Shown here one piece after another: positions 30,500 through 49,914 of a stretch of DNA of 64,000 nucleotides. Every line of letters begins with the position of its first letter. Within the stretch, counting starts at the first letter, position 1. The position numbers and the translations under genes are program-made. The notes under the pieces are model-generated. The model saw only the letters and a program-made list of their open reading frames with translations, was not told the DNA's origin and did no database searches. This stretch comes from Psychrobacillus soli (GTDB lineage: Bacteria; Bacillota; Bacilli; Bacillales_A; Planococcaceae). The stretch is taken from the NCBI RefSeq assembly GCF_006861775.1, contig NZ_VDGG01000005.1, positions 1 to 64,000 of the forward strand, in the 5' to 3' direction.

Positions 30500-30515
30500 A
30501 CATTTTATAGATGAA

Positions 30516-30644
30516 TAATCCTTCGGGGTCGGGTGAAATTCCCAATCGACGGTGATGCAAAAACTGCTAAGCCCGTGAGCCTTTTTAAGGCAGGATTTGG
30601 TGCAACTCCAAAGCCGACAGTATAGTCTGGATGGGAGAAGGATG
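30516..30644 (+). ncRNA. FMN riboswitch, copy 1
   Basis: A complete RFN element. Conserved blocks in order: CTTCGGGGTCGGGTGAAATT, CCCAATCGACGGTGAT, AAGCCCGTGAGCC, GGATTTGGTGCAACTCCAA, AGCCGACAGTATAGTCTGGA and TGGGAGAAGGATG. The variable arm is short (GAGCCTTTTTAAGGC). It binds FMN and should favour the terminator at 30730 when FMN is plentiful. Confidence 0.97.
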
Positions 30645-30729
30645 TAGCAAGTAAGCTTATTTCCTTATGGGGTAAAATATACCTCTAAAGGTTTATTTAG
30701 TGATGCTTTCAACATAAATTTCCTAATCA

Positions 30730-30765: not shown

Positions 30766-30795
30766 CAATAAAACCGAAATAATTTCATAAAAGTG

Positions 30796-30934
30796 TATTC
30801 CTTCGGGGTCGGGTGAAATTCCCAATCGACGGTGATGAAGAAATTCTAAGCCCGTGAGCCTTACTTTATTTAAAGATGGGCAGGATTTGGTGCAACTCCA
30901 AAGCCGACAGTATAGTCTGGATGGGAGAAGGATG
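30796..30934 (+). ncRNA. FMN riboswitch, copy 2
   Basis: A second complete RFN element, 280 bases after the first, with all conserved blocks identical. The variable arm is longer (GAGCCTTACTTTATTTAAAG and onward), and the P6-side bases after GGTGATG differ. The following CAAGCTTATTTCCTTATGGG of the expression platform is also shared, so the whole aptamer plus platform was duplicated. Confidence 0.97.
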
Positions 30935-31019
30935 TACGAGCAAGCTTATTTCCTTATGGGGTAAAACAACACCTCTAAAAGGTTTATTTGTCGATGCGTA
31001 AAACATAATTTCCCAAAAC

Positions 31020-34873: not shown

Positions 34874-35016
34874 TCATTGATTTGTAGGGAGGGTTTCTTG
34901 TTCAACTAAAGTAGTTATGGAATGCGAAAGCTAAATGTACAGTTATGCTGCACCATTTCTCTATAAGGAATAGTTATGAAATATTACACCGAAATTATTC
35001 CTAGGGGGTGTTTAGT

Positions 35017-35241
35017 TTGAATAATCACGAGGAAACGCCTGAAGAAAAAAGAGAACGATTAAGACAAAGTGAGTTAAAAAATAATCCGACTGGTTCTCTA
35101 AACGATGCATTAAATAGAGGAAGTAATGGGAATTTAACAGATTTAACAGGTGGTATGGGCTGGAAAGGTACAGGAATATTAATTGTTGTTTTAATAGTTG
35201 GGTATGTTTTATATAAATTGTTTTTTCATGATTTTGCTTAA
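35017..35241 (+). CDS. Small single-pass membrane protein (DUF6366-like)
   Basis: A 74-residue protein: charged N-terminal half (ETPEEKRERLRQSELKNNP), then NGNLTDLTGGMGWKGTG leading into one C-terminal membrane helix. This layout matches DUF6366 proteins of Bacillales, function unknown. The GGGGGTG site fits the TTG at 35017 better than the GTG at 35008. Directly downstream is the left copy of the SOS promoter repeat. Confidence 0.7.
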   Translation: MNNHEETPEEKRERLRQSELKNNPTGSLNDALNRGSNGNLTDLTGGMGWKGTGILIVVLIVGYVLYKLFFHDFA

Positions 35242-35274
35242 CCCCAGAACTTTTGCTGTCCCTCACTTTTTCCG

Positions 35275-35415
35275 ATTATTTTGGTCTATTACCAATAATA
35301 TCTTCTTGAATAAAAACGAATGTTCGGCATATAATAAGAACAAACGTTCTTTATCGGAGGAGAAGAGAGACGATGCATGAAGGTTTAAAAGATCGAAAAA
35401 TTATATGCATTGATA
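35275..35415 (+). repeat. Direct repeat 2, left copy (promoter and 5' end of Y-family polymerase gene)
   Basis: 141 bp aligned without gaps to 48563-48703 (offset 13,288), with five mismatches by eye, all upstream of the start codon. It contains the -35, the -10, the LexA-type box, the ribosome site and the first 14 codons plus one base. The two copies flank island 2. Confidence 0.95.
35306..35349 (+). promoter_or_regulatory. Orphan SOS promoter (copy)
   Basis: TTGAAT (35306-35311), an 18-base spacer, TATAAT (35330-35335) and GAACAAACGTTC (35338-35349), a perfect GAAC-N4-GTTC LexA/DinR box. It is the duplicate of the polymerase promoter at 48594-48637 but now drives only a truncated frame. 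Confidence 0.8.
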
Positions 35416-35477
35416 ATGGAAGGAGAATACCCATTAAAGTGGATACTCTCCTCATTAAATTTAAAAAGGGTTCTTAG
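35373..35477 (+). pseudogene. Truncated 5' fragment of Y-family polymerase gene
   Basis: The first 14 codons (MHEGLKDRKIICID) are identical to the polymerase at 48661, including the first catalytic Asp region. Sequence then diverges and the frame stops after 34 codons. A weak hairpin (GGAGAATACCC with GGATACTCTCC) follows the junction. Ribosome site and SOS promoter are intact, so a small peptide could be made after DNA damage. Confidence 0.85.
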
Positions 35478-35558
35478 TTATATAGGTTAAATATTAATTA
35501 GATGACATCATGCATCTATGCAAAAACACAAGGGAAGTAAGAAAGGATTAGCATACAT

Positions 35559-37493
35559 TTATCTAATATTTAATTCTTTTAACTTCCTATATAAAGTGGT
35601 TCTTCCGATTCCAAGTTCTTCGGCTAAGGCTGTTCGATCGCCATTTTGGATGTCTAAGTATTTTTGAATAATGGATCTTTCCGCCTCTGCTAAACTATCT
35701 TTATAGTTATCCTTTAGCACAAATTCAATTTTCTCATTTTCCGCTAGATGATGTAGTTGAATTTCTTCGATACATTCCTCTAAAAGCAGTCTATAGTAAT
35801 CTAACTTGTTTCTGTTTGTTTCAGCTAAAATGGTAAATCGTTCAAGGATATTGTAAAGTTCTCTCACATTCCCCGCAAATCGATACGTCAGCAAGTCCGC
35901 ACAAATGTCTTCGATTAAATGCTCAATTTGGCTAAAAAGTTCTTTTCGATGTTTCCATATAAAGTGTTTGGTAAGGGGAACAATATCTTCCGGCCGCTGT
36001 CTTAAAGGAGGAAGATTAATTTTTAAAACGTTCAGACGATAGTATAAGTCAGCGCGGAATTTGTTTTCTTGTACTAAGTTTATTAAATTCTCATTGGATG
36101 TAGCGATAATTCTAATATTAACCGGAATAACCTTATGACCGCCAATCCGAACAATTTCTTTTTCTTGTAGTGCCCTTAATAGCCTGGCTTGAAAGTGAAT
36201 GGAAATGGAATTGATTTCGTCTAAGAAAAGAGTTCCAGGATGAGCTAGCTCAAAAAGTCCCTTTTTTCCATCTTTCGCTGCACCTGTAAATGCCCCTTTT
36301 TCATAGCCAAAAAGTTCACTTTCTAAGAGTGTTTCAGGTAATGCGGCGCAATTGATGGCGACGAAAGGATATGCTTTCCTGTAGCTATGATTATGGATAC
36401 TCTGGGCAATTAGTTCTTTTCCTGTACCAGATTCTCCAGTTATTAAAATGGTAGAATCGGTTCTCGCAAACTTTTTAGCTTTTTCTATTGTGTGATGAAT
36501 GATTTCACTTTTGTAAATCAAGTTACTAAATTCATTTTTGGCAACTAATCCTTTTGATTCAGTCTCGACCCTATAATTATGTTCGATTTGTTGAATTTCC
36601 GAAATATCTTGCAAAGTGATGATATTGCCAATTTTTGTTCCTTTTTGAGTAACAGCCACTTTACTAGTGTTCAAAGTAATGTGATCAAATTTTATAATTT
36701 TGTTTTGAAAAGCTTCATCTTGCGTAATTTCTCGAATAGAGCGATTTGGTATGATTTTTAACAGGCGATCGCCAATAATATTTTTTTTTTGTATATTAAG
36801 AAGATTCCAGGCCGATTCGTTAATAAGGGTAATCTTATCTTGTTCATCTGTTGCGATAATTCCATCTCGTACCGAATCAATAACAGCCTTAAGATGCTGC
36901 CTTTGATTTTCTTCCGCCCTTTTAAAGTGGATAATTTCAATTGCACGTTCAATGGATGCAATGATACTGACTTCGGAATATATTAATGTGCCTGATAGTC
37001 CATATTCTTTCGCATAAATAACCCCAGTCCCTGTACTGATGACTGTTCCTTTTGTATTTGAATAGGTTTCAATTTTCTGTCGTAACTCATCCTGTGTGTT
37101 GTAACTAATGTAGTGAAGTTGAACTTGCAAAAGCTCTTCTAGAATCGAATAATCATATTTAAGCTCTTCAAGGTCAGGCAATGTTATGGCAATTTTGTTT
37201 GAAAAGGGCAAAGATTTTTGAACAGCAAATAACATATCGATTGGTGTTACTTTTAGTTTTATAACGGGGATACTCGTCCGTTTTTCAAGAAATACTTTGA
37301 AAAAATGCCCTGTGATAATTATATCTGTTTCATTTTCTTCTAATTTAGTCAAAATCCTTGGGAGTGTAATAGAAAGGTCCCCTCCACAATCGAAGACGGT
37401 GATTTCAATATCACTATTTTTAAACTTTATCGTTGAGTTTCTTGCTAAATTCACGAATTCCCCTCGTCCCACAACCGCAATTTTTGTTTTCAT
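35559..37493 (-). CDS. Sigma-54-dependent activator with PrpR-type sensor domain
   Basis: A 644-residue enhancer-binding protein. Residues 1-190 resemble the PrpR N-terminal domain, about 200-310 form a PAS domain ([20 protein letters not shown]), and about 335-560 the AAA+ domain with Walker A GESGTGKE, the sigma-54 contact loop GAFTGA and Walker B TLFLDEI. The C-terminus is a Fis-type helix-turn-helix ([20 protein letters not shown]). It is divergent from an operon with a near-consensus sigma-54 promoter, its obvious target. PrpR domains sense small organic ligands. Start ATG 37491-37493 follows TTGGAGGGCTAT, rather than 37505. Confidence 0.95.
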
Positions 37494-37572
37494 ATAGCCC
37501 TCCAACTAAAAGTTTTTATTTGTATATCTGAATATTTCGACTAAAATCAAAAAATCCCTTTTTTAAAACAAT

Positions 37573-37590
37573 TGTTTCAGTTTTGGAACA
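37573..37590. promoter_or_regulatory. Candidate upstream activator site
   Basis: TGTTTCAGTTTTGGAACA is a near-palindrome (TGTTTC / GGAACA), followed by CTGACTAGTTCAG, another partial dyad. They lie 50-70 bases upstream of the sigma-54 promoter, where an enhancer-binding protein usually sits. Confidence 0.5.
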
Positions 37591-37641
37591 CTGACTAGTT
37601 CAGTTTCGAAAAAATAACTGATAAATCAGCAAATTGAAAGT

Positions 37642-37657
37642 TGGCACGGAAGTTGCA
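37642..37657 (+). promoter_or_regulatory. Sigma-54 (-24/-12) promoter
   Basis: TGGCACGGAAGTTGCA matches the consensus TGGCAC-N5-TTGCA exactly. The transcript would start near 37669, about 45 bases before the RraA-like gene. Confidence 0.92.
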
Positions 37658-37713
37658 TTAATAGATAACAAGAATATTTTCTGAATGTTCTTAATTTAGA
37701 AAGGGGGATGTTT

Positions 37714-38403
37714 GTGTTTACTGTTAAGCCAAGAGTTCAAGGGGTTACTCCAGAATTAGTTGATTTGTTTCAAGACGTTGGTACATCCACGATTGGTCAT
37801 CTTACTGATTTTGGATTTTTAAAAGGGTTAAAACCATTATTTAGACCAATCCACTTCGTAGGTAATGCTGTAACAGTTCGTCTTCCACATATGGATTCAA
37901 CAGCTGTCCATAAGGCTTTGGATTTTGTTGAACCTGGTGATGTCCTTGTCATTGATATGTCGGGGGATGTGGAAAGATCTTGTTTTGGGGGGATAGTATC
38001 CTACGCTGCAAAAGCTAAAAAAGTGGCAGGTGTCATTGTTGCTGGAAGCATTAATGATGTTGAGGAAATAAAGGAGATTCAATTGCCGGTATTTTCACTA
38101 GGAGTGAGCCCAATCACTACACGCATTCTCGGCATTGAAGGGGAAATTAATACAACGGTAAGTGTATGTGGGGTAAGTATTCATCCAGGTGACCTAGTGG
38201 TAGCTGATAATGATGGTGTGTTCATTATAAATCCAAAATCTGCAGCTAAATATGCGGAAATTGCGATAGAAAAGCAGCTAAGAGAGCCTGAGACAAAAAG
38301 GAAGATTGATTCTGGTATTTCGCTTGCTTCTATAAGTAAAGCTGATCGATTTTTTACGACTGAAGGGCAATCAGAGAGCAAGGAACCAACAAAAGTAATA
38401 TAA
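37714..38403 (+). CDS. RraA-like family protein (HMG/CHA aldolase-like)
   Basis: A 229-residue protein of the RraA fold, a group that includes 4-hydroxy-4-methyl-2-oxoglutarate aldolases and oxaloacetate decarboxylases. VGTSTIGHLTDFG near residue 25, PGDVLVIDMSGDVERSCFGG near 75 and the VKPGDLVVADNDGV-like HPGDLVVADNDGVF near 165 are recognisable. The metal/substrate motif normally DGxxRD reads AGSIND, so the catalytic Arg is Asn; aldolase activity is doubtful. AAGGGGG fits the GTG at 37714 better than ATG 37708. First gene of the sigma-54 operon. Confidence 0.82.
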   Translation: MFTVKPRVQGVTPELVDLFQDVGTSTIGHLTDFGFLKGLKPLFRPIHFVGNAVTVRLPHMDSTAVHKALDFVEPGDVLVIDMSGDVERSCFGGIVSYAAKAKKVAGVIVAGSINDVEEIKEIQLPVFSLGVSPITTRILGIEGEINTTVSVCGVSIHPGDLVVADNDGVFIINPKSAAKYAEIAIEKQLREPETKRKIDSGISLASISKADRFFTTEGQSESKEPTKVI

Positions 38404-38412
38404 AATAACATT

Positions 38413-38490
38413 CTGATTTTGCAAAATCAGCCAAGAGCATGTATATATCATCGGTTTCATTTTACTGCACCGGTGATTAATTTGTACATT
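38413..38490 (+). other. Hairpins between RraA-like and binding-protein genes
   Basis: CTGATTTTGCAAAATCAG (38413-38430) is a perfect palindrome; further on ATCATCGGT pairs imperfectly with ACCGGTGAT. No T-run follows either, so they more likely affect mRNA stability than termination. Confidence 0.45.
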
Positions 38491-38544
38491 AAATTACCGA
38501 TAATTTAATTTTATACAATAAAATCATAAAGGTGGGAAATAAGA

Positions 38545-40098
38545 GTGAGGAGAACGAAAACTTTTAAATTTTGCTCTATCATGCTGTTGTTAGTATTTCT
38601 AGTCATTATGAGTGCATGTAAGTCAGCTGAGTCATCTTCATCAAGCGCAAAAAGCGATAAGAGTATAGTTGTTGCATTAACTGGGGAAGCGAATAGCTTA
38701 GATCCACATAACACGACAGATACAGCTTCTAAACAAATATATTCAGTAATGGCGGAAACATTAGTAAGTTTGAATGAAAATGGAGAAGTAGTACCACTTT
38801 TAGCGAAGAGTTGGGAAAATTCTGAGGATGGGAAGACTTGGACATTCCAGCTTGAAGAAGGGGTAGAATTTACAGATGGTACTCCATTTAATGCAGAAGC
38901 AGTAAAAATTAACTTTGAACGTGTCACAAACGAAGAGGACAAATTAGCAAGATATCCTATGTTAGGTCCATATCTTGATAGTATTACGGCTAATGGCGAT
39001 TACGAAGTTGTATTTCATTTGAATAGTCCTGTAGGTCCTTTTTTGAATATTCTTGCTTTCCCTTCTGGGAGCAATATTATTAGCCCTAAAACAATCGCAG
39101 AAGGTATAGAGTCAATTAGAACAAACCCAATTGGAACAGGCCCTTATAAAATTAAAAACTGGTCACCTGGAACTGATACCGTTTTTGAAGCAAATCCTAA
39201 TTATTGGGGTGGAACTCCACAATTAGACCAGATTACTTTTAAGGTTGTTCCTGAAAATGCTTCACGTGTACTGATGCTAGAAACTGGTGAGGTAGATATC
39301 ATTTCAGACGTTCCAGCTACAGATATTGAAAGAATAAACAATAGTGAAGAGACAAAAGTAAATTCAATCGAAATCAACCGTACTTTGTATGTTGGAATTA
39401 ATAACTCAGTAGCTCCTTTTGACAAGGTGGAAGTTCGCCAAGCATTAAACTATGCGATTGATAAAGTTGCGCTGACAAATGATTTATATGAGGGTCGAGT
39501 GAAAGAGAGTTCTGCCATCGTATCTTCTAAGGACCAAATGTATAGTAATGCGGGTACTTATCCATATGATTTAGAAAAGGCAAAGGAATTGTTAAAAAAG
39601 GCAGGGGTCAAGGAAGGTACTAAAGTAAGACTTGTAGCTGCGGGCAACGCTGTTCGAGATCATAAGGCTGGACAATATGTTCAAACTAGTTTGCAACTAC
39701 TAGGATTTGATGTTGAGTTTCAAATGTTGGAGCTGAATGATTATTTAAATACTTTAGATGATCCAAGTAAATATGAACTCTATTTAAGAGGTGGGATTGC
39801 AAACACAAATGATGCCTATGACATCCTAAGGGATAGTTTTTATTCTGATAGTAAATATAATTATGCCCGTTATATAAATCCAAACATTGATCAGGCTATA
39901 GAAAAAGGTGCTATTGAGCCTAATATAGAAAATCGTAAGAAGATTTATGAAGAAGCATTTAAGGATATTAAAGAGGATGCTCCGTGGATTTTCCTTTATG
40001 AGGATACTGTGCACATCGGGATGAGGTCAAACATAGAAGGCCTGATTGTCCCACCAACACATCTTTGGAATTTCACAGAGGTACGCAAATCAAACTAG
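38545..40098 (+). CDS. ABC transporter substrate-binding lipoprotein (dipeptide/oligopeptide type)
   Basis: A 517-residue family 5 solute-binding protein. The signal peptide ends in lipobox VIMSACK; the mature protein has ALTGEANSLDPHNTTDTASK and LAKSWENSEDGKTWTFQLEE, hallmarks of DppA/OppA-type receptors. It captures a peptide or amide-like solute for the DppBCDF-type importer encoded downstream. Start GTG 38545 after GGTGGG. The ligand is unknown; the enzymes in the operon suggest a compound with amide or cyclic amide bonds. Confidence 0.93.
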   Translation: MRRTKTFKFCSIMLLLVFLVIMSACKSAESSSSSAKSDKSIVVALTGEANSLDPHNTTDTASKQIYSVMAETLVSLNENGEVVPLLAKSWENSEDGKTWTFQLEEGVEFTDGTPFNAEAVKINFERVTNEEDKLARYPMLGPYLDSITANGDYEVVFHLNSPVGPFLNILAFPSGSNIISPKTIAEGIESIRTNPIGTGPYKIKNWSPGTDTVFEANPNYWGGTPQLDQITFKVVPENASRVLMLETGEVDIISDVPATDIERINNSEETKVNSIEINRTLYVGINNSVAPFDKVEVRQALNYAIDKVALTNDLYEGRVKESSAIVSSKDQMYSNAGTYPYDLEKAKELLKKAGVKEGTKVRLVAAGNAVRDHKAGQYVQTSLQLLGFDVEFQMLELNDYLNTLDDPSKYELYLRGGIANTNDAYDILRDSFYSDSKYNYARYINPNIDQAIEKGAIEPNIENRKKIYEEAFKDIKEDAPWIFLYEDTVHIGMRSNIEGLIVPPTHLWNFTEVRKSN

Positions 40099-40149
40099 AT
40101 TTATAGAGATATTATATAAGCAACTTTTAAAAAAATAGGAGTGAATAAA

Positions 40150-40980
40150 ATGTCTTTTCAAATTGTAATGGCTCAGTTAGGTTCTTCAGAAAATAAACAA
40201 GAGAATTTAGAAAAAGCTGAAAAAGCATTGAGGGATTCAACAAATCTTTATGGGGCTGATATGGTTGTCTTCCCAGAAGCATTCATGAGTTATTTCGAAG
40301 TGGGAACACCAACAGAAGTAAAAATAAACGATGCTGAACCAATCGAAGGACCATTTGTATCTGCGATGAGTGAATTAGCAAGTAAATATGGGGTCTGGGT
40401 TGTATTTGGCATGCGTGAGAGTACGGAAGATGTAGATGATAAGAGAGTTTATAATTCAACAGTAGTTATAAATTCATCTGGCTTAATTGAAAGTGTTTAT
40501 CGTAAAACGCATTTATATGATGCATTTGGAGGAAAAGAGTCAGATACTATTAAACCAGGTGATGCCTTATTCGAACCGATTGATACGCCTTTCGGAAAAA
40601 TTGGATTGTTTGTTTGTTATGAATTACGATTCCCTGAAATCGCTCGTCATCAAGCGCTAAACGGGGCTGATATCCTTATTGTTCCTTCAGGTTGGGTAAA
40701 AGGACCGTTAAAAGAACACCATTGGGAAAATCTTGTAACGACACGTGCGATAGAAAATACTGTTTATGTAGTCGCTTGTGACCATGTGAATGATTACTAT
40801 ATGGGACAGAGTATGGTCGTTGATCCTATGGGAGTGGTAATAGCAAAAGGAAATGAAAATGAGTGTTTGATTCCGTGCCGAATCGATTTAAAGCGTGTTC
40901 AGGAAGTTCGAAAAAAACTCCCTTCTTATATACACCGTCAACCAAGCTTATATAAGGGTGCAGGGATTTATACATCCTGA
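40150..40980 (+). CDS. Nitrilase-superfamily C-N hydrolase
   Basis: A 276-residue carbon-nitrogen hydrolase. The Glu-Lys-Cys triad is visible: VVFPEAFMSYF (Glu about 42), YRKTHLYDAFG (Lys about 117) and GLFVCYELRFPE (Cys about 154). The family contains nitrilases, omega-amidases and N-carbamoyl-amino acid hydrolases; PSGWVKGPLKEHHWE suggests an amidase-like member. AGGAGTG fits ATG 40150, not GTG 40141. Cytoplasmic. Confidence 0.9.
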   Translation: MSFQIVMAQLGSSENKQENLEKAEKALRDSTNLYGADMVVFPEAFMSYFEVGTPTEVKINDAEPIEGPFVSAMSELASKYGVWVVFGMRESTEDVDDKRVYNSTVVINSSGLIESVYRKTHLYDAFGGKESDTIKPGDALFEPIDTPFGKIGLFVCYELRFPEIARHQALNGADILIVPSGWVKGPLKEHHWENLVTTRAIENTVYVVACDHVNDYYMGQSMVVDPMGVVIAKGNENECLIPCRIDLKRVQEVRKKLPSYIHRQPSLYKGAGIYTS

Positions 40981-41066
40981 AGTTTAATTGTCCGATCCTA
41001 TTTAGCGTTTTTAAATGATTGTTAATTTCGAAGAGTTTAACTAATTTTACAAACTTTTTATAACGG

Positions 41067-41101
41067 AAATTGGGGACTTATTTTGTACTAGTCCCCAATT
41101 T
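41067..41101 (+). terminator. Perfect 12-bp hairpin inside the operon
   Basis: AAATTGGGGACT (41067-41078) is exactly complementary to 41090-41101, loop 11 bases; the following ACTTGG is not a T-run. It may cause partial termination or stabilise the upstream mRNA, setting more binding protein and nitrilase than permease. Confidence 0.55.
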
Positions 41102-41172
41102 ACTTGGCTGCAATAGTTTTTGCTCACTCTAAATTAAAATGAAAAAGTGCCATAGATTGAGGGGTGGATAGA

Positions 41173-42096
41173 TTGTCAATATATCTTGTTAAACGTTTAT
41201 TGCATTTAATACCTACTTTAATTGGTGTTACATTATTTGCTTTTTTACTAGTAGCTGCTGTGCCCGGGGATCCAGCGCAAATCATTGCTGGGGAATCGGC
41301 ATCTGAAGAAGAGGTGCAGATTATTAGGGATCAATTAGGCATTGACAAACCCTTATACCAGCAATATATAAGCTATGTCACAAATATCTTCAAGGGGGAT
41401 TTAGGAACATCCTTGCGATCCAGCAAGCCCGTCTTAGATGAAATTTTATTGCGTTTTCCTACAACCCTCATTCTTACTGTCATGTCCCTGGTAGTGATGA
41501 TTATCGTAGGGCTAATTGCAGGAATTGCTTCTGCCACAAAGCCAAATAGTATAAGGGATAACGTTTCCATGATGATTTCATTATTTGGAATTTCAATGCC
41601 GGTTTTCTGGATGGGGATCATGTTTATTCTTCTCTTTTCCTATTACTTGCCGTGGTTTCCTTCAGGTGGAAGTAGCGAATTCAAACACTTTGTCCTACCT
41701 TCGCTTGTCTTAGGGCTTTCTGCATCCGGAATTTTAGCGAGACTTACAAGATCAAGTATTCTTGAAATTGTTAATCAGGATTTCGTCCGAACAGCTCGAG
41801 CGAAAGGGGTTAAAGAAAAGTATGTCATCTACAAGCACACTTTGAAAAATGCTTTAATTCCGATTATCACCATTGTTGGTATGGAATTTGGCGTTTTATT
41901 AGGTGGAGCGGTGATTACAGAGACAGTATTTTCAATGAATGGAATTGGAAGATATGTTGTTGAATCCATCCAATTTAGAGATTTCCCAGCTATTCAAGGA
42001 AGTATTCTATTCATTTCAACGATTTTTGTTTTGGTGATTCTGCTTGTTGATCTTTCTTATAGTATTGTAGATCCAAGAATCCGATACGAAAATTAG
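41173..42096 (+). CDS. ABC transporter permease (DppB type)
   Basis: A 307-residue permease with six membrane helices. It opens SIYLVKRLLHLIPTLIGVTL, typical of DppB/OppB, has VPGDPAQIIAG in the first external loop and LTRSSILEIVNQDFVRTARA-type EAA loop for ATPase contact near residue 195. GAGGGGTGG fits the TTG at 41173 (GTG 41164 is the longer choice). Pairs with DppC. Confidence 0.94.
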   Translation: MSIYLVKRLLHLIPTLIGVTLFAFLLVAAVPGDPAQIIAGESASEEEVQIIRDQLGIDKPLYQQYISYVTNIFKGDLGTSLRSSKPVLDEILLRFPTTLILTVMSLVVMIIVGLIAGIASATKPNSIRDNVSMMISLFGISMPVFWMGIMFILLFSYYLPWFPSGGSSEFKHFVLPSLVLGLSASGILARLTRSSILEIVNQDFVRTARAKGVKEKYVIYKHTLKNALIPIITIVGMEFGVLLGGAVITETVFSMNGIGRYVVESIQFRDFPAIQGSILFISTIFVLVILLVDLSYSIVDPRIRYEN

Positions 42097-42110
42097 AAAG
42101 GGGCTTTTAG

Positions 42111-43010
42111 ATGGAAATAATAGAAAATGTGGTGTCACAAAAGGAAGTTGTTGCACCTGCATATGTACCACGTTCTCCATGGAAAATGATGATTCAACGT
42201 TTTAAAAAGAATAAGCGTGCGATGATAGGGTTGTACATTACCTCATTATTTGTCATTTTGGCCATATTTGCTCCGTGGATCTCTCCATACAATCCTTTTG
42301 AGTACAATATGAAAGCACTGCTACAAGCACCTAGTTTAAGTCATCCGTTTGGAACAGATCAATTTGGTCGCGATGTTTTATCTCGAATTATTCATGGTTC
42401 CCGTATTTCCTTAATGATTGGAATTGTTGGAGTAGGGATTTCTATCATAGTCGGGGTGACATTAGGAACAATGGCTGGCTATTTTGGCGGGATTTTAGAT
42501 TCGATTATTATGAGAATCATGGATATCCTTTTGGCGTTTCCTGGATTTCTATTGGCACTAGCTATCATTAGCATTCTAGGACCAAATATGGTGAATGTTA
42601 TGATTGCGATTGGTATTTTCTCTATTCCTACCTTTGCTCGAATTATGCGCAGCTCGGTCATTTCTATTAAATATAAAGAATTTATAGAAGCGACTAAATC
42701 GCTAGGGGGCAGTCACTTGTTTATCATCATCAAACACGTGATACCAAATTGTATTGCCCCAATTATTGTCTTATCTACGATGAGAATTGCGACAGCTATT
42801 TTAACAGCTGCAGGTTTAAGCTTCCTAGGATTGGGAGCTCAGCCACCTTCACCAGAATGGGGAGCAATGTTAAATGAGGGTAGGGAATATATTAGAGCTG
42901 CATCCCATTTAAGTACAATCCCAGGATTAATAATTATGTTAGTCGTACTAGGTTTTAATATGCTAGGGGATGGCCTGCGTGATGCTCTAGATCCACAAAT
43001 GAAGATTTAA
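42111..43010 (+). CDS. ABC transporter permease (DppC type)
   Basis: A 299-residue permease, second half of the membrane channel. WISPYNPFEYN and HPFGTDQFGRDVLSRIIHGS near residues 60-90 are DppC/OppC hallmarks; the EAA loop is FIEATKSLGGSHLFIIIKHV near 190. It starts at ATG 42111 after GAAAGGGGC, 14 bases after dppB, and ends 12 bases before dppD. Confidence 0.95.
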   Translation: MEIIENVVSQKEVVAPAYVPRSPWKMMIQRFKKNKRAMIGLYITSLFVILAIFAPWISPYNPFEYNMKALLQAPSLSHPFGTDQFGRDVLSRIIHGSRISLMIGIVGVGISIIVGVTLGTMAGYFGGILDSIIMRIMDILLAFPGFLLALAIISILGPNMVNVMIAIGIFSIPTFARIMRSSVISIKYKEFIEATKSLGGSHLFIIIKHVIPNCIAPIIVLSTMRIATAILTAAGLSFLGLGAQPPSPEWGAMLNEGREYIRAASHLSTIPGLIIMLVVLGFNMLGDGLRDALDPQMKI

Positions 43011-43022
43011 GGGGGAGTGACT

Positions 43023-44033
43023 TTGGAAAGTTTATTAGAGATTAATAATCTTAAAACTTACTTTTATTCCGAAAACGGTGAAGTTCCAGCTGTAGATGGA
43101 GTCAGTATTACAGTTAAAAAAGGGGAAACATTAGGAATTGTAGGAGAATCTGGTTCAGGAAAAAGTGTCACGGCATTAACAGCTATGAGATTAAGTCAAG
43201 GAAAGGTAATGGGCGGCTCCGTTAAATTTAAAGGAATCGATCTCCTATCCTTATCTGATGAAGAGATGAGAAAAATCCGTGGAAAGGAAATAGCGATGAT
43301 TTTTCAGGAGCCCATGACATCGCTAAATCCAGTATTTACAGTAGGGAATCAAATTATGGAAGCCATTCAAACCCATATGGACGTTGGTAAGTCTAAAGCC
43401 AAGGAGAGAGCAGTTGAACTACTAGCCCTAGTAGGGATTCCACGGCCAGAACAAATTGTGAACGAATATCCTCACCGGCTGTCGGGGGGCATGCGGCAGC
43501 GTGTCATGATTGCTATGGCAATGGCTTGTAATCCGAGTCTATTAATTGCGGATGAACCGACTACCGCCTTGGATGTAACAATCCAAGCACAAATATTAGA
43601 TTTAATGAGAGACCTTAAGGAAAAGCATAATACGGCAATAATGATGATTACCCATGATTTAGGTGTAGTAGCCGAAACGTGTGATCGTGTTTGTGTTATG
43701 TATGGAGGCAAAGTAGTAGAAGAAAGTGATGTTCAGGAGATTTTTAAAAACCCAAAACATCCTTATACACAAGGTTTGCTGAAATCTGTACCTACTTTAA
43801 TAGATTCCGAACAACAGACAAGGCTTTATTCGATAGAAGGAAATGTGCCGATTCCTGGGTCATTGCGTGAAGGTTGTTACTTTGCCCCTCGCTGTGAATT
43901 TGCAATGGAAATATGCAGAACAAAAGCCCCTGCATTTAAAGAGGTGGAACCGGGGCATTTCAATCGCTGCTGGCTTCATGAATTGGACGAAAGGGGGGAA
44001 CTCGATGTTAAACAATTGGTTGAATCAAATTGA
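43023..44033 (+). CDS. ABC transporter ATP-binding protein (DppD type)
   Basis: A 336-residue ATPase: Walker A GESGSGKS near residue 40, Q-loop [12 protein letters not shown], signature LSGGMRQRV, Walker [10 protein letters not shown] and the C-terminal oligopeptide-transporter extension with four Cys ([15 protein letters not shown]) typical of DppD iron-sulfur-type tails. GGGGGAG fits TTG 43023 (GTG 43017 also possible). Its end overlaps the start of the M20 amidohydrolase gene by 29 bases. Confidence 0.94.
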
Positions 44034-45234
44034 AAACATGTTTGACCAAATGGTGGAGTGGCGAAGGTATATGCATCAACATCCAGAACTTTCCTTTCAA
44101 GAAGTAGAGACGCCAAAAATGATTGCCTCTATTCTTGAAAGTTTTGGAATCGAAGTTCGTAGAAATGTGGGAGAAAGAGGGGTTGTTGGGATAATATATG
44201 GAGGTAAACCAGGAAAAACAATTGCTCTTCGTGCTGATTTTGATGCACTTCCTATCCAAGATGAAAAGGACGTTCCTTATAAGTCTAAAGTAAACGGAGT
44301 AATGCATGCTTGTGGACATGACGGGCACACGGCCACTCTTTTAGCTGTAGCAAAAGTTTTACAAGATAACCGAGATCAACTTGAGGGTAATGTAGTCCTC
44401 CTTCATCAACATGCCGAAGAAAAATGCCCAGGCGGTGCGATTGCAATGATTAAAGATGGGTGCTTAGAGGGAGTTGACGCGGTATTTGGAACACATCTAT
44501 TGACTAAAGTGCCCACAGGCTTTTATGGGTACAGAAAAGGCTATACCATGGCTGCAAGTGACCAATTCGCCATTAAAATTCATGGAAAAGGCGGCCACGG
44601 GGCATCTCCACACGAAACGGTTGATGCGATTGCTATTGGTAGCCAAGTAGTCAATCAATTACAGCATATTGTGAGCCGACAAGTGAATCCCTTAAAATCT
44701 GCTGTTGTATCAGTAGGATCATTCCACGCGGGAAAGGCCTCGAATGTAATTGCGGATTCAGCTGAACTAATTGGAACAGTTCGTACCTTTGACGAAGATG
44801 TGCGAGATCAGATTAAGAGGGAAATGGAAGTGATTGTAAATGGTATTTGTTCAGCCTTTCATGCTACCTACACAATCACTTATGAGAGTGGATATCCTGC
44901 CGTATATAACCATGCAGAAGAGACGGAAGCTTTTGTACAGGCAGTTGAGAAAAACATAGGAGAAGATACTCTTATTGAAATTGATCCATCAATGGGAGGA
45001 GAAGATTTTGCATATTATTTAAAACAAAAACCGGGAATGTTCTTCTATACTGGGGCTCGAAATGAAAGTATCAAAGCAAAGTATCCTCATCATCATCCAA
45101 AATTTACTTTTGATGAACAAGCTATGGTAATGGCTGGCAAGGGATTAATAAGCATTGTTCATCATTATCTAGTTTCGGAAGCTTCGAAGGCAGAGAAAAA
45201 GTCTGATACTGAAGCGGAGAAATCCTTCATATAA
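44005..45234 (+). CDS. M20 family amidohydrolase (N-acyl-amino acid/hippurate hydrolase type)
   Basis: A 409-residue zinc amidohydrolase of the M20D group. [31 protein letters not shown] (metal ligands), [13 protein letters not shown], and [20 protein letters not shown] cover the catalytic domain; [14 protein letters not shown] lies in the dimerisation lid. The family removes acyl groups from amino acids. It is inserted between the two ATPase genes of the importer, so its substrate is probably what the importer brings in. AAGGGGGG fits ATG 44005, inside dppD. Confidence 0.93.
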
Positions 45235-45305
45235 GAAAGGGATCGATGTTTGAATTTTTGTTCAAGCGTCCTATACATTTACTTTGGATAAAAAGGGGGC
45301 TTAAA

Positions 45306-46271
45306 ATGAAGCAATCATTAGTGGAGATTAAGAATTTCAAAAAATATTATTCAAGCAAAAGGAGCTTTCTAAATCGAAATGTCAGTTATGTAAAGGCAGT
45401 TGATGGCTTGAACTTCACTATTTATAAAGGGGAAACTTTAGGGTTAGTAGGCGAAAGCGGTTGTGGAAAATCGACAACAGGTAGAGCGATTTTACAGCTT
45501 CAACCACCGACTGAAGGAGAAGTGTTATACGAGGGAGAAAATCTTGTCGGAATGAACACAAAGGATTTGAGAAGGGTTCGAAAGGAAATGCAAATGGTCT
45601 TCCAAGATCCATACGCTTCTCTTGATCCTCGGATGACAGTCGGGGAAATTATTTCAGAACCTCTTGAAATTCATAAAATAGCTTCAGGTAAAGAAAAAAA
45701 CATTCGTGTGGATGAATTACTCGATACGGTAGGCTTAAGCAGCTACCATGCTAAACGTTATCCTCATGAATTTAGTGGAGGACAGCGCCAAAGGGTAGGT
45801 ATTGCGCGAGCGTTAGCGCTAAATCCAAAATTTATCGTGGCGGATGAGCCAGTATCGGCACTCGATGTTTCTATTCAATCACAAATTGTGAATCTCTTTC
45901 AGGATTTGCAAGAGCGGTTTGACTTAACATATTTATTTATTGCACATGATTTAAGCGTCGTGAAACATATTAGCGATCGCGTGGCTGTAATGTATTTAGG
46001 TCGAATTGTTGAGATGGGGGATAAGAAAACTTTATTTAGTCAACCTATGCACCCATATACACAGGCGTTGTTATCGGCCGTTCCATTGCCGAATCCAAAT
46101 GTAAAAAAAGAAAGAATCATGCTTCGTGGGGATGTTCCAAGCCCTTCAAACCCACCAAATGGATGTACGTTCCATACTCGTTGTAGTCAATGTATGGAAA
46201 TTTGTAAGACAGTTCAACCAGAGTTTAAGGAAGTAGATGGGCGTATGATTGCGTGCCATTTATATAACTAA
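45306..46271 (+). CDS. ABC transporter ATP-binding protein (DppF type)
   Basis: A 321-residue ATPase: Walker A GESGCGKS, LQPPTEGEVLYEG after it, Q-loop FQDPYASLDPRMTVGEI, signature FSGGQRQRVGIARAL, Walker B FIVADEPVSALD, and the C-terminal CTFHTRCSQCMEICK tail. It completes the importer as the second ATPase. AAAAGGGGG fits ATG 45306 rather than the earlier open start at 45246. Confidence 0.95.
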   Translation: MKQSLVEIKNFKKYYSSKRSFLNRNVSYVKAVDGLNFTIYKGETLGLVGESGCGKSTTGRAILQLQPPTEGEVLYEGENLVGMNTKDLRRVRKEMQMVFQDPYASLDPRMTVGEIISEPLEIHKIASGKEKNIRVDELLDTVGLSSYHAKRYPHEFSGGQRQRVGIARALALNPKFIVADEPVSALDVSIQSQIVNLFQDLQERFDLTYLFIAHDLSVVKHISDRVAVMYLGRIVEMGDKKTLFSQPMHPYTQALLSAVPLPNPNVKKERIMLRGDVPSPSNPPNGCTFHTRCSQCMEICKTVQPEFKEVDGRMIACHLYN

Positions 46272-46283
46272 ATAAGGTTTACT

Positions 46284-46440
46284 TTTAACTTCATTCAGTA
46301 GAAGTCTCCCACTTCTTTAAGTGGCAAATAGTAAAACCATTCAGTGGTGGTTCAATCTCTGAATGAAGTTAAAGCCTCCGGCGGATATCACAGATTTTAC
46401 CGAGCAAGCTTGATAAAATCTGGGCACAAATACGGAAAGG
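46284..46440 (-). mobile_element. IS200/IS605-like end remnant or small structured element
   Basis: A 15-bp perfect inverted repeat (TTTAACTTCATTCAG at 46284-46298, its complement at 46359-46373) encloses nested hairpins (AGAAGT CTCCC ACTTCT; CCACTT/AAGTGG; ACCA/TGGT). Next to it GCCTCCGGCGG and a CAGATTTTA/TAAAATCTG hairpin recall the subterminal and guide-RNA region of IS605/TnpB elements read on the minus strand. No tnpA or tnpB frame remains. The assignment is by resemblance only. Confidence 0.4.
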
Positions 46441-46520
46441 CGCATTTGATTGTAGGAGATTGGATTACTAATAAATTTTTAAAACTGAATATTAATAATA
46501 TTATAAAGGATGGGTTGAAA

Positions 46521-47294
46521 ATGACATTTAAAAAATCAAATTTTCTAAAAGAAATGAGCTGGACTCGATTTGAAGGAAGAAAAAAAGATACGGACCTTGT
46601 AATTATTCCTTCAGGTGCATTTGAAGTATATGGCTACCATTTACCGTTGGGAACAGATACACTCGTTTCCGTAAAGATTGCAGAAATTCTTGCTGAACGT
46701 GTTAATGCTATTATTGGACCTACGTTAGAGGTTGGTGATTCAACGGCCTTAGAGGAATTCCCAGGAACAATGGTAATTAAGGCAGAAAATTTCAAACAAT
46801 ATTTATGGGACACAGTAAAAAGCTTAGAAAAATGGGGATTTAAAAAATTCCTTTTTATTAATTCTCACGCGGGAAATGTACCTATTATTAATCAAGTAGC
46901 TAGGGATTTACAGTCTAATTCGGAAATTCAATGCGCTCAAATTGATTATTGGCGTTTTATAAAAAATCATGATAATGGGATTATTGAGTCCGGAGAGTTA
47001 GCACATACACATGCGAGTGAAGCAGGTACTTCCGTGATGATGTATCTATATCCAGAACTTTGTGATTTAGAAAAACGGGTAAACGAACCACCGAAAACTG
47101 GAGACGATTATCCAGACATTATTAAATACATTCCTTTTTCTGAGAAAACGGACTCTGGCACAATCGGAGATGCAACATTGGGAACGAAGGAAAAAGGGGA
47201 GAAACTTGTCAATCGCTCGGTCAATCGAATTGTTGAATTTTTAGTAGAAAGCTGGGAGATTAAAGAGCTTGAGGAGCAAGTTTTAGAAGTGTAA
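46521..47294 (+). CDS. Creatininase-family amidohydrolase
   Basis: A 257-residue protein of the creatininase/MftE fold. IPSGAFEVYGYHLPLGTDT near residue 31 is the GxxEqHGpHLPLgTD metal motif with Tyr in place of one usual residue; FINSHAGNVP near 115 is the N-x-H-x-G-N motif (usual GGN is AGN), and AHTHASEAGTSVMMY near 165 the HAGxxETS motif. It should hydrolyse a cyclic or linear amide. The frame is open from 46344 through the structured element upstream, but AAAGGATGGG fits ATG 46521. Confidence 0.88.
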   Translation: MTFKKSNFLKEMSWTRFEGRKKDTDLVIIPSGAFEVYGYHLPLGTDTLVSVKIAEILAERVNAIIGPTLEVGDSTALEEFPGTMVIKAENFKQYLWDTVKSLEKWGFKKFLFINSHAGNVPIINQVARDLQSNSEIQCAQIDYWRFIKNHDNGIIESGELAHTHASEAGTSVMMYLYPELCDLEKRVNEPPKTGDDYPDIIKYIPFSEKTDSGTIGDATLGTKEKGEKLVNRSVNRIVEFLVESWEIKELEEQVLEV

Positions 47295-47320
47295 ATTTTG
47301 AAGTGTTGACTGGAGACAAA

Positions 47321-48247
47321 ATGGAATTTTCTTTAATTTTTGAATCAATCTTTATTATTAGTATTATGATTGCATTAGGATCGTTGATATCGAGAACATT
47401 TCCATTCAATAGTGATACACGTAAACTTTTAGTTAGTCTCATTGTCAATATTGCAATGCCATCTATTATTCTTTCAAGTATATTAAATGTAGAAATTAAT
47501 AGAGAAACCTTTAAAATGATTGCAAATGTTTTTATTTTATCTGTCATCATTAATCTGCTTGGAATTCTTATTGGCTGGTTATTTTCGAACACCTTTTATC
47601 GTCATTCAACCAAGAAAAGAGAAATTGCCTTATTGTCTGGTCTAGGGAATACGGGGTTTATTGGAATTCCTTTGTGTGCAGCGCTTATTGGTCCAGAAGG
47701 AGCACTATTCGCTGCAATCTTTGATGCGGGAGTAGACATTACCCTTTGGACGATTGGCGTGCTAATTATTCAGAAAAACAGGCGGTTTTCGTTCAAGTCA
47801 TTAAAGGAATTAATAAATGTTCCAACTATAGCAATTGTATTTGGTCTTTTTATTGCATATTTCAACATGAAACCACCTGCAGTTTTCATCGAATTAGCGA
47901 ATCAGCTAGCAAATCTCGCAGCCCCGTTAGCCATGTTTTACATTGGTATTCTTGTTATGAATTTATACCGGAAAAAGACTCAAGATTCAGATCAGGAGAT
48001 TTGGGTTCCTATTGTTGTAAAGCTAATTGTTTTACCTGCGTGTGTTGCATTAATGGTTAACTATTTGTATCTTAAAAGTGATATCTTACAAACGATACTA
48101 ATTCAATCTATGATGCCGTCACTCACACTTGCATCTATACTATTTGCCAAATACTCTGCAGATGAGAATATGGGGGCATTTACGACTGTGCTATCGACTA
48201 TAGTTGCTTTAATTACGATTCCGCTTATGCTTTATTTATTTTTGTGA
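47321..48247 (+). CDS. AEC family transporter (auxin efflux carrier type)
   Basis: A 308-residue membrane protein with ten hydrophobic segments. SLIVNIAMPSIILSSIL near residue 45 is the first NxPxPxL-like AEC motif, ALLSGLGNTGFIGIPLC near 100 the second half-signature, and LIQSMMPSLTLASILFAKY near 250 the C-terminal one. AEC carriers move carboxylates such as malate. TGGAG fits ATG 47321. Last gene of the sigma-54 operon; it may export or import a product of the pathway. Confidence 0.9.
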   Translation: MEFSLIFESIFIISIMIALGSLISRTFPFNSDTRKLLVSLIVNIAMPSIILSSILNVEINRETFKMIANVFILSVIINLLGILIGWLFSNTFYRHSTKKREIALLSGLGNTGFIGIPLCAALIGPEGALFAAIFDAGVDITLWTIGVLIIQKNRRFSFKSLKELINVPTIAIVFGLFIAYFNMKPPAVFIELANQLANLAAPLAMFYIGILVMNLYRKKTQDSDQEIWVPIVVKLIVLPACVALMVNYLYLKSDILQTILIQSMMPSLTLASILFAKYSADENMGAFTTVLSTIVALITIPLMLYLFL

Positions 48248-48562
48248 GATATGAGATTGAATTAATAGAAAAATGACAATTACCTCATACATGATCTTAA
48301 CGATTTAGTATTTGATCCATAATATTAGCTTGTAATTTTGAGGTTTTTGTCATCTGTTCGTTTCAATAGTTAAAACAGGTCCCTTAAAGATGCCATAATG
48401 AATTCTAATATGACTACTTTGAAAATTGTGCTGTTCAATATTTTTAGATTCGAAAGTGTAGAGGATGTTCGAAGATATATTCAATAATGCAGTTACGACC
48501 TTACTGATAACTGCCTAAAAACCCTTATGCAATCGTCCTTGATTCTTTAAGTGTTTTTTTCA
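48248..48562. other. Non-coding right end of island 2
   Basis: AT-rich, no credible gene. A short plus-strand frame (about 48402-48487) starting MNSNMTTLKIVLFNIFRFES has no ribosome site. It ends where the right copy of direct repeat 2 begins. Confidence 0.4.
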
Positions 48563-48703
48563 ATTATTTTGGTCTAATACCAATTAAATCTTCTTGAATA
48601 AAAACGAATGTTCGGCATATAATAAGAACAAACGTTCTTTAGTGGAGGAGAAGAGAGACGATGCATGAAGGTTTAAAAGATCGAAAAATTATATGCATTG
48701 ATA
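48563..48703 (+). repeat. Direct repeat 2, right copy
   Basis: Copy of 35275-35415. Here it continues into the intact Y-family polymerase gene, so this side holds the functional promoter and 5' end. Confidence 0.95.
48594..48637 (+). promoter_or_regulatory. SOS promoter with LexA/DinR box
   Basis: TTGAAT (48594-48599), 18-base spacer, TATAAT (48618-48623), and GAACAAACGTTC at 48626-48637 (perfect GAAC-N4-GTTC), just after the -10 where LexA would block RNA polymerase. Confidence 0.88.
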
Positions 48704-49914
48704 TACGGAGCTTTTTCGCAAGCTGTGCGGCTGCAGATGCAGGACTCGACATTATGCGCACGCCAATTGCAGTAATCGGAAATTTAGAACAAAAAGGAAG
48801 TATTGTGCTTGCGGCATCTCCCATGATGAAAAAGAAATTTGGAGTGAAGACAGGAACACGGCTCTTTGAAATTCCAGATCATCCATCGGTTCATTTAATC
48901 GAACCGAAGATGGAGTTTTTCGTTCGCGTTTCCATGGAAATCACACGTTATCTAAATCAATTTGTTCCAACCGAAGCAATTCATGTGTACAGCGTCGATG
49001 AATGCTTCGCTGATCTGGGAGGAACAGAAAAATTATGGGGACCGGTAGAAAGTACAATTAAACAAATACAAGATGGGCTATATAACCAGTTTCAATTACC
49101 ATGTGCGGTTGGAATGGGACCAAATATGCTCATGGCGAAGCTTGCACTGGATTTGGAAGCGAAAAAAACAGGCTTTGCGAAATGGGCGTATGAAGATGTG
49201 CCCCAAAAATTATGGCCTATTACGCCACTCTCCAAAATGTGGGGAATTGGCTCTCGTTTAGAAAAAACATTAAATAATATGGGAATAATAAGTGTTGGGC
49301 AATTAGCAAACACATCGCTTGTGACACTGGAAGCTAAGTTTGGCGTAATGGGAAATCAGTTGTATCATCATGCGCGGGGAATTGATTTGTCAGAACTTGG
49401 TGCTCCTTTAGCAGAAGGACAAATTAGTTACGGCAAGGGGCAAGTGCTATTTCGTGATTATCGTTCAAAAGAGGAAATAATGACAGTCGTATTAGAAATG
49501 TGTGAAGATGTGGCGAGACGTGCTCGCGAAGCCGAAATGGTCGGAAGAACGGTCCATCTCTCCATTAATTACAGTCAAGATGCATTTGGTGGAGGGTTTA
49601 ATCGCTCTCGTTCGATTGATGAGCCGACGAATGCCACGATGACCATTTATAAAGTATGCGAACAAATTTTTGATGAATTTTACGATCACAGGCCCGTTCG
49701 CAAACTGTCGATTTCCATTACGAATCTAGAACCCGAGTACTCCATGCAACTGAGCCTATTTGAAGAGGACAACTGGAAAGTTCGAGAACTGGGAAAAACA
49801 ATGGATTACCTCCGAAGTAAATATGGCTCTAATGCCATATTGCGCGCCGTTTCCTACACGGAAGCAGGTACGGCGAGAAAACGTGCAGGGTTACTTGGTG
49901 GGCATAAGAAATAA
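48661..49914 (+). CDS. uvrX: Y-family DNA polymerase (UvrX/YqjW type)
   Basis: A 417-residue translesion polymerase. IICIDIRSFFASCAAAD near residue 10 holds the first catalytic Asp, YSVDECFADL near 115 the Asp-Glu pair; the thumb (MWGIGSRLEKTLNNMGI) and little-finger domain follow, and QLSLFEED near the C-terminus resembles a beta-clamp binding motif (QLSLF). It copies damaged DNA after SOS induction, in line with the LexA box at its promoter. UvrX/YqjW in Bacillus subtilis and its prophage SPbeta are the nearest relatives by motif. Its first 14 codons are duplicated at 35373. Confidence 0.93.
   Translation: MHEGLKDRKIICIDIRSFFASCAAADAGLDIMRTPIAVIGNLEQKGSIVLAASPMMKKKFGVKTGTRLFEIPDHPSVHLIEPKMEFFVRVSMEITRYLNQFVPTEAIHVYSVDECFADLGGTEKLWGPVESTIKQIQDGLYNQFQLPCAVGMGPNMLMAKLALDLEAKKTGFAKWAYEDVPQKLWPITPLSKMWGIGSRLEKTLNNMGIISVGQLANTSLVTLEAKFGVMGNQLYHHARGIDLSELGAPLAEGQISYGKGQVLFRDYRSKEEIMTVVLEMCEDVARRAREAEMVGRTVHLSINYSQDAFGGGFNRSRSIDEPTNATMTIYKVCEQIFDEFYDHRPVRKLSISITNLEPEYSMQLSLFEEDNWKVRELGKTMDYLRSKYGSNAILRAVSYTEAGTARKRAGLLGGHKK

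What the first reader, a model, noticed from the sequence alone, without database searches (positions are those of the whole stretch)
35275..48703. 13-kb sigma-54 catabolic island flanked by a 141-bp direct repeat of a neighbouring gene's promoter and 5' end
35275-35415 and 48563-48703 align without gaps over 141 bp, with five mismatches by eye. The repeat is the SOS promoter, LexA box, ribosome site and first 14 codons of the Y-family polymerase gene. The polymerase is intact on the right; the left copy is cut off after codon 14. Between them lies a self-contained regulator, importer and amidohydrolase operon with no integrase. The simplest reading is insertion by recombination (Campbell-type, or homology-assisted illegitimate recombination) next to a damage-inducible polymerase gene. 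This is not a transposon or tRNA-site island.
Basis: partly seen in the sequence, partly recalled or inferred. Interest (0 to 1): 0.85.

Follow-up and report, generated by a model that had tools for sequence, protein, structure and literature searches.

The report
Acquired gene cluster flanked by polymerase-gene repeat
A 13-kb block of uptake and amide-degrading genes was inserted next to a DNA-repair polymerase gene in a Psychrobacillus bacterium, leaving a second copy of that gene's control region and first 14 codons as a scar; it is a clear, fairly ordinary case of horizontal gene acquisition by recombination.

Summary
Confirmed. Two same-genus genomes (G006, G016) show the empty site: DUF6366 directly followed by one promoter and pol1. 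The block 35416-48380 recurs at 96.5% identity in Psychrobacillus sp. OK032 (G011), at another site, and in none of the other 17 genus relatives searched. The two islands differ at 7.5% of 4-fold sites, against 32% (pol1) and 39% (argH): the island moved horizontally after the lineages split. The 174 bp before the right copy match nothing in 40 relatives. The repeat starts where pol1-region homology also starts in the four nearest relatives, and ends at an illegitimate joint with 1-base overlap. Best mechanism: a donor fragment closed into a circle and integrated by one crossover; linear homology-facilitated illegitimate recombination is the main rival. G011's own pol1 carries an independent ~17.4-kb hydantoinase island with a longer broken repeat. 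A recombination scar of a known kind, moderately interesting because it recurs at SOS-polymerase loci.

The parts
35017..35241 (+). DUF6366 gene, native left neighbour of pol1
   Evidence: Pfam PF19893 E 5.9e-37; adjacent to the pol1 promoter in G016 and G006
35267..35415 (+). left repeat copy: pol1 promoter region, LexA-like box, ribosome site, 14 codons
35373..35414 (+). orphan first 14 codons of pol1; reads on to a 34-aa ORF
35415..35416 (.). left junction: pol1 codon 14 joined to island end, 1-nt overlap (A)
35416..48380 (.). acquired catabolic island, 12,965 bp; 96.5% identical to G011:C30:6685-19732
35559..37505 (-). PrpR_N / sigma-54 activator regulator
   Evidence: PF00158 E 5.1e-69, PF06506 E 3.6e-22
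37642..37657 (+). -24/-12 sigma-54 promoter consensus, exact match
   Evidence: the only 0-mismatch hit in the window
37708..38403 (+). RraA-like aldolase family protein
38545..40098 (+). ABC solute-binding protein, SBP_bac_5
40141..40980 (+). CN-hydrolase (nitrilase superfamily amidase)
41164..42096 (+). ABC permease, DppB type
42111..43010 (+). ABC permease, OppC type
43017..44033 (+). ABC ATPase, oligopeptide type
44005..45234 (+). M20 amidohydrolase
45306..46271 (+). ABC ATPase, oligopeptide type
46524..47294 (+). creatininase-family amidohydrolase
47318..48247 (+). AEC / Mem_trans family transporter
48381..48554 (.). 174 bp of unknown origin between island and right repeat; read as donor sequence upstream of its pol1
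   Evidence: no match in 40 relatives or in the plasmid collection
48555..48703 (+). right repeat copy, continuous with pol1
48661..49914 (+). pol1: intact Y-family (UvrX-like) DNA polymerase
   Evidence: PF00817, PF11799; PHROG 1268 E 1.1e-113; homologues annotated UvrX

Best explanation
The 12,965-bp catabolic operon is a horizontally acquired island in a Psychrobacillus chromosome, sitting between two native neighbours, DUF6366 and pol1 (shown). It most likely came in as a DNA fragment from a related strain in which the island stood just upstream of pol1 (inferred). That fragment, reading island - 174 bp - pol1 promoter - first 14 codons, was closed into a circle by end-joining with a 1-base overlap (inferred; the joint and overlap are seen). 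A single crossover in the ~149 bp shared with the resident pol1 then inserted the whole circle (inferred). The product is what is seen: native DUF6366 with promoter and 14 codons on the left, then island and donor spacer, then promoter and complete pol1 on the right. The polymerase stays intact because the incoming homologous segment restores its 5' end.
For: Empty sites in G016 and G006. Same block at 96.5% over 13,051 bp at another site in G011. 4-fold divergence of 118/1580 in the island against 55/173 in pol1 and 70/179 in argH. The repeat's upstream edge coincides with the start of pol1-region homology in the four nearest relatives: G011 48552, G016 48555, G006 48556, G013 48555; in the other 12 with full-length pol1 the match starts about 39 bp further in. 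This is expected if the repeat begins where donor and recipient homology begins. The downstream edge is a pol1/island joint with a 1-nt overlap. Precedent: in PMC3240628 (passages) 56 of 60 E. coli clones gave a PCR product diagnostic of partial duplication of the homologous locus; 14 sequenced ones confirmed it (109-950 bp), attributed by the authors to single crossover of a shortened circle. A second, independent case of the same topology exists at pol1 of G011.
Against: No donor with island - 174 bp - pol1 was found and a circle cannot be seen in an assembly. L and R differ from each other (7/149) about as much as from G011 (8 and 9/149), so this stretch alone does not say whether R is donor-derived. 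All 7 mismatches lie in the first 89 bp; a donor/recipient pair would be expected to differ throughout. The shared upstream edge may merely mark the functionally conserved promoter region. A linear route gives the same product. G011's parallel island contains transposase genes, so that case may have another cause. The genome is a draft of 101 contigs.
Confidence: 0.62

Rival explanations
1. Linear homology-facilitated illegitimate recombination (HFIR): donor DNA carrying island and pol1 recombined homologously inside pol1 downstream of codon 14, and its other end was joined illegitimately to the resident gene at codon 14.
For: Same final product; the left joint is illegitimate with 1-nt overlap. 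HFIR is reported in three naturally competent species; in E. coli 3 of 4 HFIR clones had no homology at the new junction, so a 1-nt overlap is not against it (PMC3240628, passages).
Against: HFIR generally removes recipient DNA of a size similar to the insert, with inserts of about 1 kb on average (PMC3240628); here nothing is missing relative to G016 and G006 and the insert is 13 kb. No sustained switch of nearest relative along pol1 marks a crossover.
Confidence: 0.22
2. Remnant of a site-specific element (IME/ICE type) that used the pol1 5' end as att site and has lost its integrase; the 149 bp are attL/attR.
For: IME8 of the related genus Lysinibacillus integrates in yolD of an acnL-yolD-uvrX SOS operon (PMC13239906; abstract, sections 3.5 and 4.2 and passages). 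G011 holds a different island at the same pol1.
Against: No integrase in the island ORFs scanned. No IME8 att sequence within 4 mismatches in the window. The G011 copy of the island has no pol1 repeat, and the repeat at G011's pol1 ends at about codon 66, not 14. PMC13239906 reports its Psychrobacillus example as without attB.
Confidence: 0.07
3. Replication template switching or a tandem duplication of the pol1 5' region by the cell, with island DNA captured at the break.
For: L and R agree at four sites where G011 differs (91, 106, 122, 125). G010 shows an old tandem duplication of the pol1 3' end plus a 157-aa gene.
Against: Does not explain the 174 bp of unmatched sequence, nor why the repeat starts at the edge of pol1-region homology.
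Confidence: 0.07
4. Assembly artefact joining two loci through the repeat.
For: Draft genome; repeat of 149 bp.
Against: Copies differ at 7 sites with no exact run over 60 bp; DUF6366 on the left and the 359-aa gene at 50009 on the right (labelled DUF1835 from recall) flank one pol1 in G006 and G016.
Confidence: 0.02

Closest known systems
Single-crossover (Campbell-type) integration of a shortened circle, as seen in E. coli (PMC3240628, passages)
   Same: Cargo inserted whole; partial duplication of the homologous locus of similar size (109-950 bp in 14 sequenced clones; 149 bp here)
   Different: There a plasmid in the laboratory; here a 13-kb catabolic operon in nature, old enough for the copies to differ by 5%; the circle is inferred
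Homology-facilitated illegitimate recombination (HFIR)
   Same: One homologous and one illegitimate joint, no integrase
   Different: No recipient deletion and a very large insert
IME8 of Lysinibacillus sphaericus (PMC13239906)
   Same: Cargo island at a UvrX-type SOS polymerase locus in a related genus
   Different: IME8 has tyrosine recombinases and an att site inside yolD; here no integrase found, DUF6366 rather than yolD beside pol1, and a 149-bp promoter/5'-end repeat
Conserved catabolic operon of Cytobacillus depressus and Neobacillus kokaensis (L137, L138)
   Same: Regulator, RraA, SBP, CN-hydrolase, ABC genes and creatininase in the same order, 71-93% protein identity
   Different: No AEC match; M20 lacks its middle in L137 and has no match in L138; no pol1 match in the fetched stretches (about 20.8 kb each)

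Membership tests
Single-crossover duplicative integration | Direct repeat of a chromosomal locus flanks the insert; one copy truncated, one intact | tested here: met
Single-crossover duplicative integration | Relatives lacking the insert carry a single copy of the locus | tested here: met
   G016 and G006: one copy; only these two keep an intact DUF6366 at pol1 in the stretches fetched
Single-crossover duplicative integration | Circular intermediate, or a donor bearing island plus pol1 5' end | tested here: inconclusive
   No donor among 40 relatives; one genome per species is held and a circle cannot be seen in an assembly. Filed as works like, not proven
HFIR | One illegitimate joint, usually with short microhomology | tested here: inconclusive
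   Left joint has 1-nt overlap
HFIR | Recipient deletion coupled to the insertion | tested here: not met
   DUF6366, promoter and pol1 all kept, compared with G016 and G006
ICE / IME / tRNA-type genomic island | Integrase or recombinase gene | tested here: not met
   None at Pfam cut-off in 16 of 16 island ORFs of 80 aa or more
ICE / IME / tRNA-type genomic island | Same att ends at each insertion of the element | tested here: not met
   G011 copy sits at another site without the pol1 repeat; one other copy only
Transposon | Terminal inverted repeats and short target duplication | tested here: not met
   No inverted-repeat pair of 20 nt or more joins the two ends; shorter ones looked for by eye only; the duplication is 149 bp
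IME8-type yolD target | attB sequence, and yolD next to uvrX | tested here: not met
   No att match within 4 mismatches in the window; the neighbour of pol1 is DUF6366

The most novel reading that the evidence does not exclude
UvrX-type SOS polymerase loci act as integrase-free docking sites. Islands that carry a piece of the polymerase 5' region excise by RecA-mediated recombination between the repeats, most readily under DNA damage, and re-integrate by homology into the polymerase gene of other Psychrobacillus strains. The orphan SOS promoter left upstream also drives damage-induced transcription towards the convergent sigma-54 regulator gene.
Probability: 0.08. Interest if true: 0.72.

Novelty: new member of a known kind. 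Interest (0 to 1): 0.36.

Why it matters
It is an unusually readable scar: native left neighbour, native right neighbour, an empty site in two relatives and the same island elsewhere, so a large operon can be shown to have entered with no mobility gene found in it. Two independent insertions with different cargo at the same polymerase gene, plus the published IME8 case, suggest that SOS polymerase loci of this group collect foreign DNA, which can be tested across more genomes. It does not need a new mechanism.

Tried and rejected
Chance similarity: rejected. Island ancestral at this site: rejected, absent from 17 of 18 genus relatives and from both empty sites. Plasmid origin: DUF6366 occurs on two Cytobacillus plasmids at 88-90% nt identity over 225 bp, with no polymerase annotated within 6 kb, in a gene table that is incomplete. 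The plasmid collection holds no close full pol1 (best by coverage 68.7% over 88% of the query) and no close relative of the island's amidase (66 of 66 records under 60% aa identity at E 1e-30). Phage origin: best pol1 match is Psychrobacillus phage PVJ1, 67.9% over 82%, too distant to have supplied the repeat. The 174-bp stretch: no match in 40 relatives or plasmids. Mosaic pol1 as a mark of the crossover: G011 is nearest in most 150-column bins inside the gene; G016/G006 lead by 0.01 in one inner bin (49152) and G006 in the last ones, at and past the stop codon; no sustained switch. I first read an 85-aa ORF beside the G011 island as YolD-like; Pfam gives no match, so the name is dropped, while the neighbouring 92-aa ORF does match the LexA DNA-binding domain. 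A 170-bp stretch left of the G011 island looks by eye like an aminotransferase 3' end; not tested. A terminator just inside the left junction: the fold is not better than shuffles (z -0.94).

Pol1 as a proven hotspot: not claimed. In four sampled stretches (200, 124, 140 and 44 kb), direct repeats of at least 80 bp and 90% identity, 2-40 kb apart, occurred twice in the 200-kb G011 stretch: once at Bacillaceae-1 small RNAs, once as the 3' end of an SDR-like gene (named by eye) flanking about 10 kb. They occurred once in the 124-kb stretch (the finding), never in the 140-kb one, and twice in the 44-kb one (both parts of the G011 pol1 repeat). Two pairs at 88% in the 140-kb stretch, near a transposase-like ORF, fell just below the limit.
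Full report
Observation. The repeat is real: one ungapped pair of 149 nt, 35267-35415 and 48555-48703, 95% identical. The mismatches fall at repeat positions 6, 8, 23, 31, 33, 88 and 89; the last 60 bp are identical. Apart from a tandem FMN-riboswitch pair it is the only direct repeat of 60 nt or more that the ungapped search finds in the window. The right copy continues into an intact 417-aa Y-family polymerase (pol1). The left copy has promoter, LexA-like box (name recalled), ribosome site and 14 codons, then runs out of pol1 into island sequence and stops after 34 codons in all. The promoter hexamers are exact in place in both copies, though the promoter scan of this region as a whole is not above chance (44 found, 47.7 in shuffles).

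What lies between. The genes are a divergent PrpR_N/sigma-54 regulator, an RraA-like protein, a solute-binding protein, a CN-hydrolase, two permeases, two ATPases, an M20 amidohydrolase, a creatininase-family protein and an AEC-family transporter. An exact -24/-12 sigma-54 consensus lies at 37642-37657, in front of the operon (with one mismatch allowed the window has 6 hits against 4.2 expected, so the exact hit and its place carry the weight). In 16 of 16 island ORFs of 80 aa or more no integrase or transposase domain reached Pfam's cut-off. The operon is an established one: Cytobacillus depressus and Neobacillus kokaensis carry most of it in the same order at 71-93% protein identity, and four Paenibacillus loci carry a more distant form without a match to the regulator, M20 or AEC genes. 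The likely role is uptake and hydrolysis of a small amide or acylated compound; that is inference from family names.

Empty site. In G016 and G006 the DUF6366 gene is followed directly by one promoter copy and pol1, colinear with window 34988-35415 and then 48555 onwards. So the left copy keeps the native upstream neighbour and the right copy the native gene body. Full-length pol1 is present in 17 of 19 genus genomes counting this one; G002 has a deletion and G012 has none. Only G006 and G016 keep an intact DUF6366 at pol1 in the stretches fetched (upstream DNA was short for G004 and G018), so there are two empty-site comparators. Short matches of 33-55 bp to the promoter alone occur elsewhere in G003, G010 and G017; I take them for other SOS-type promoters, untested.

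The island elsewhere. There it matches window 35415-48380 at 96.5% over 13,051 bp, but beside argH/argG (named by eye), where island plus flanks replace about 4.9 kb present in G016. Its flank in G011 includes a LexA-domain ORF and a decayed 5' end of a second UvrX-type polymerase. Between the two genomes the island differs at 118 of 1580 four-fold sites (7.5%), whereas pol1 differs at 55 of 173 and argH at 70 of 179. The island was therefore shared long after the two lineages split. An interspersed ~92-bp repeat with matches in 15 of 18 genus relatives and in none of 22 genomes outside the genus (candidates per genome capped) sits in both islands between the second ATPase and creatininase genes and falls outside the stretches aligned to Cytobacillus. 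This suggests that the island had already been in this genus.

The junctions. The left junction joins pol1 codon 14 to the island end with one shared base. On the right the shared island ends at 48380, and 174 bp follow that match nothing in 40 relatives or in plasmids. The upstream edge of the repeat is where homology of the pol1 region also starts in G011, G016, G006 and G013 (48552, 48555, 48556, 48555), although DNA further upstream differs among them (G016 and G006 resemble each other there). In the other 12 relatives with full-length pol1 the match starts about 39 bp further in. This is what one expects if the right copy came from a donor with a different sequence upstream of its pol1, the repeat beginning where homology begins; it could also just mark a conserved promoter region.

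Mechanism. These facts fit a donor fragment (island, 174 bp, promoter, 14 codons) that closed into a circle and entered by one crossover. PMC3240628 (passages) reports this product in E. coli: 56 of 60 clones gave the PCR product diagnostic of a partial duplication, and 14 that were sequenced confirmed duplications of 109-950 bp, read by the authors as single crossover of shortened circles. The same passages say that HFIR generally deletes recipient DNA and inserts about 1 kb on average, neither of which holds here. They also say 3-10 bp of microhomology is usual in competent species but that 3 of 4 E. coli HFIR clones had none, so the 1-nt overlap does not separate the two. A linear route can give the same product and is kept as the main rival. 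Against the favoured view: no donor was found, the two copies are about as far from each other (7/149) as from G011 (8 and 9/149), and all mismatches lie in the first 89 bp.

Recurrence. In G011 the pol1 locus holds a different island, about 17.4 kb between the repeats, with hydantoinase genes, an MFS transporter and also transposase genes. It is flanked by a broken repeat that spans about 1.2 kb when measured on G016, from upstream of DUF6366 to about pol1 codon 66; the pieces still alignable between its copies are 265, 129 and 90 bp. The left copy is broken and the right copy leads into intact pol1. Both G011 copies share a DUF6366 deletion that this genome lacks, so the two duplications look independent. 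Among 16 relatives with intact pol1, partial extra pol1 copies near the gene were seen in 3 (G011, 5' part; G010 and G017, 3' part), leaving aside self-matches of 62 bp or less; the fetched neighbourhoods were incomplete for several, such as G004 and G018. G010's looks like an old tandem duplication, not an island. A background sample also found a partial SDR-like gene repeat flanking about 10 kb in G011, so pol1 is not proven to be special.

Known cases. [quoted passage not shown] abstract, sections 3.5 and 4.2 and passages). The window does not meet that definition: no integrase found, no att match within 4 mismatches, and DUF6366 rather than yolD at pol1. Searches for uvrX with genomic island and integration (6 papers), Psychrobacillus with horizontal gene transfer (14), yolD/uvrX/attB (4), and two on partial duplication and flanking repeats (0 each) showed no title or abstract describing this structure (listings only, apart from IME8). 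In PMC5361080 I saw passages that propose HFIR for effector-module insertion in Vibrio.

Verdict. Observation confirmed, interpretation supported with refinements, mechanism likely but unproven, kind already known.

Noticed in passing
window 30515-30646 and 30795-30936: Two complete FMN riboswitch aptamers in tandem (114.4 and 115.8 bits) ahead of the rib genes; the doubled arrangement also shows in alignments to G016 and G011. One paper search for the phrase 'tandem FMN riboswitch' found none.
   Followed up: partly
window 46359-46451: A dispersed ~92-nt element with a strong predicted fold (46350-46460, + strand z -2.62, 0 of 200 shuffles; - strand z -2.04) and related copies in 15 of 18 genus relatives; no Rfam match at gathering threshold.
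   Followed up: partly
G011:C26:335097-352464 (L071, L072): Independent ~17.4-kb hydantoinase island, with transposase genes, at the same pol1 gene, flanked by a broken repeat of the pol1 upstream region and 5' end.
   Followed up: yes
G011:C30:5235-5870 (L077): Fragment of a second SOS polymerase locus (LexA-domain ORF plus decayed polymerase 5' end; 84% identical over 161 bp to G011's intact second polymerase locus) beside the second island copy.
   Followed up: partly
L188 2044-2201 and 12545-12702 (G011:C30): 158-bp, 93.7% repeat of the 3' end of an SDR-like gene about 10.5 kb apart: possibly another duplicative insertion scar.
   Followed up: no
L170 6925-9728 (G010): Tandem duplication of the pol1 3' end together with a 157-aa gene.
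   Followed up: no
window 35017-35241: The DUF6366 gene is 88-90% identical in DNA to copies on large Cytobacillus plasmids, suggesting that it is mobile too.
   Followed up: partly
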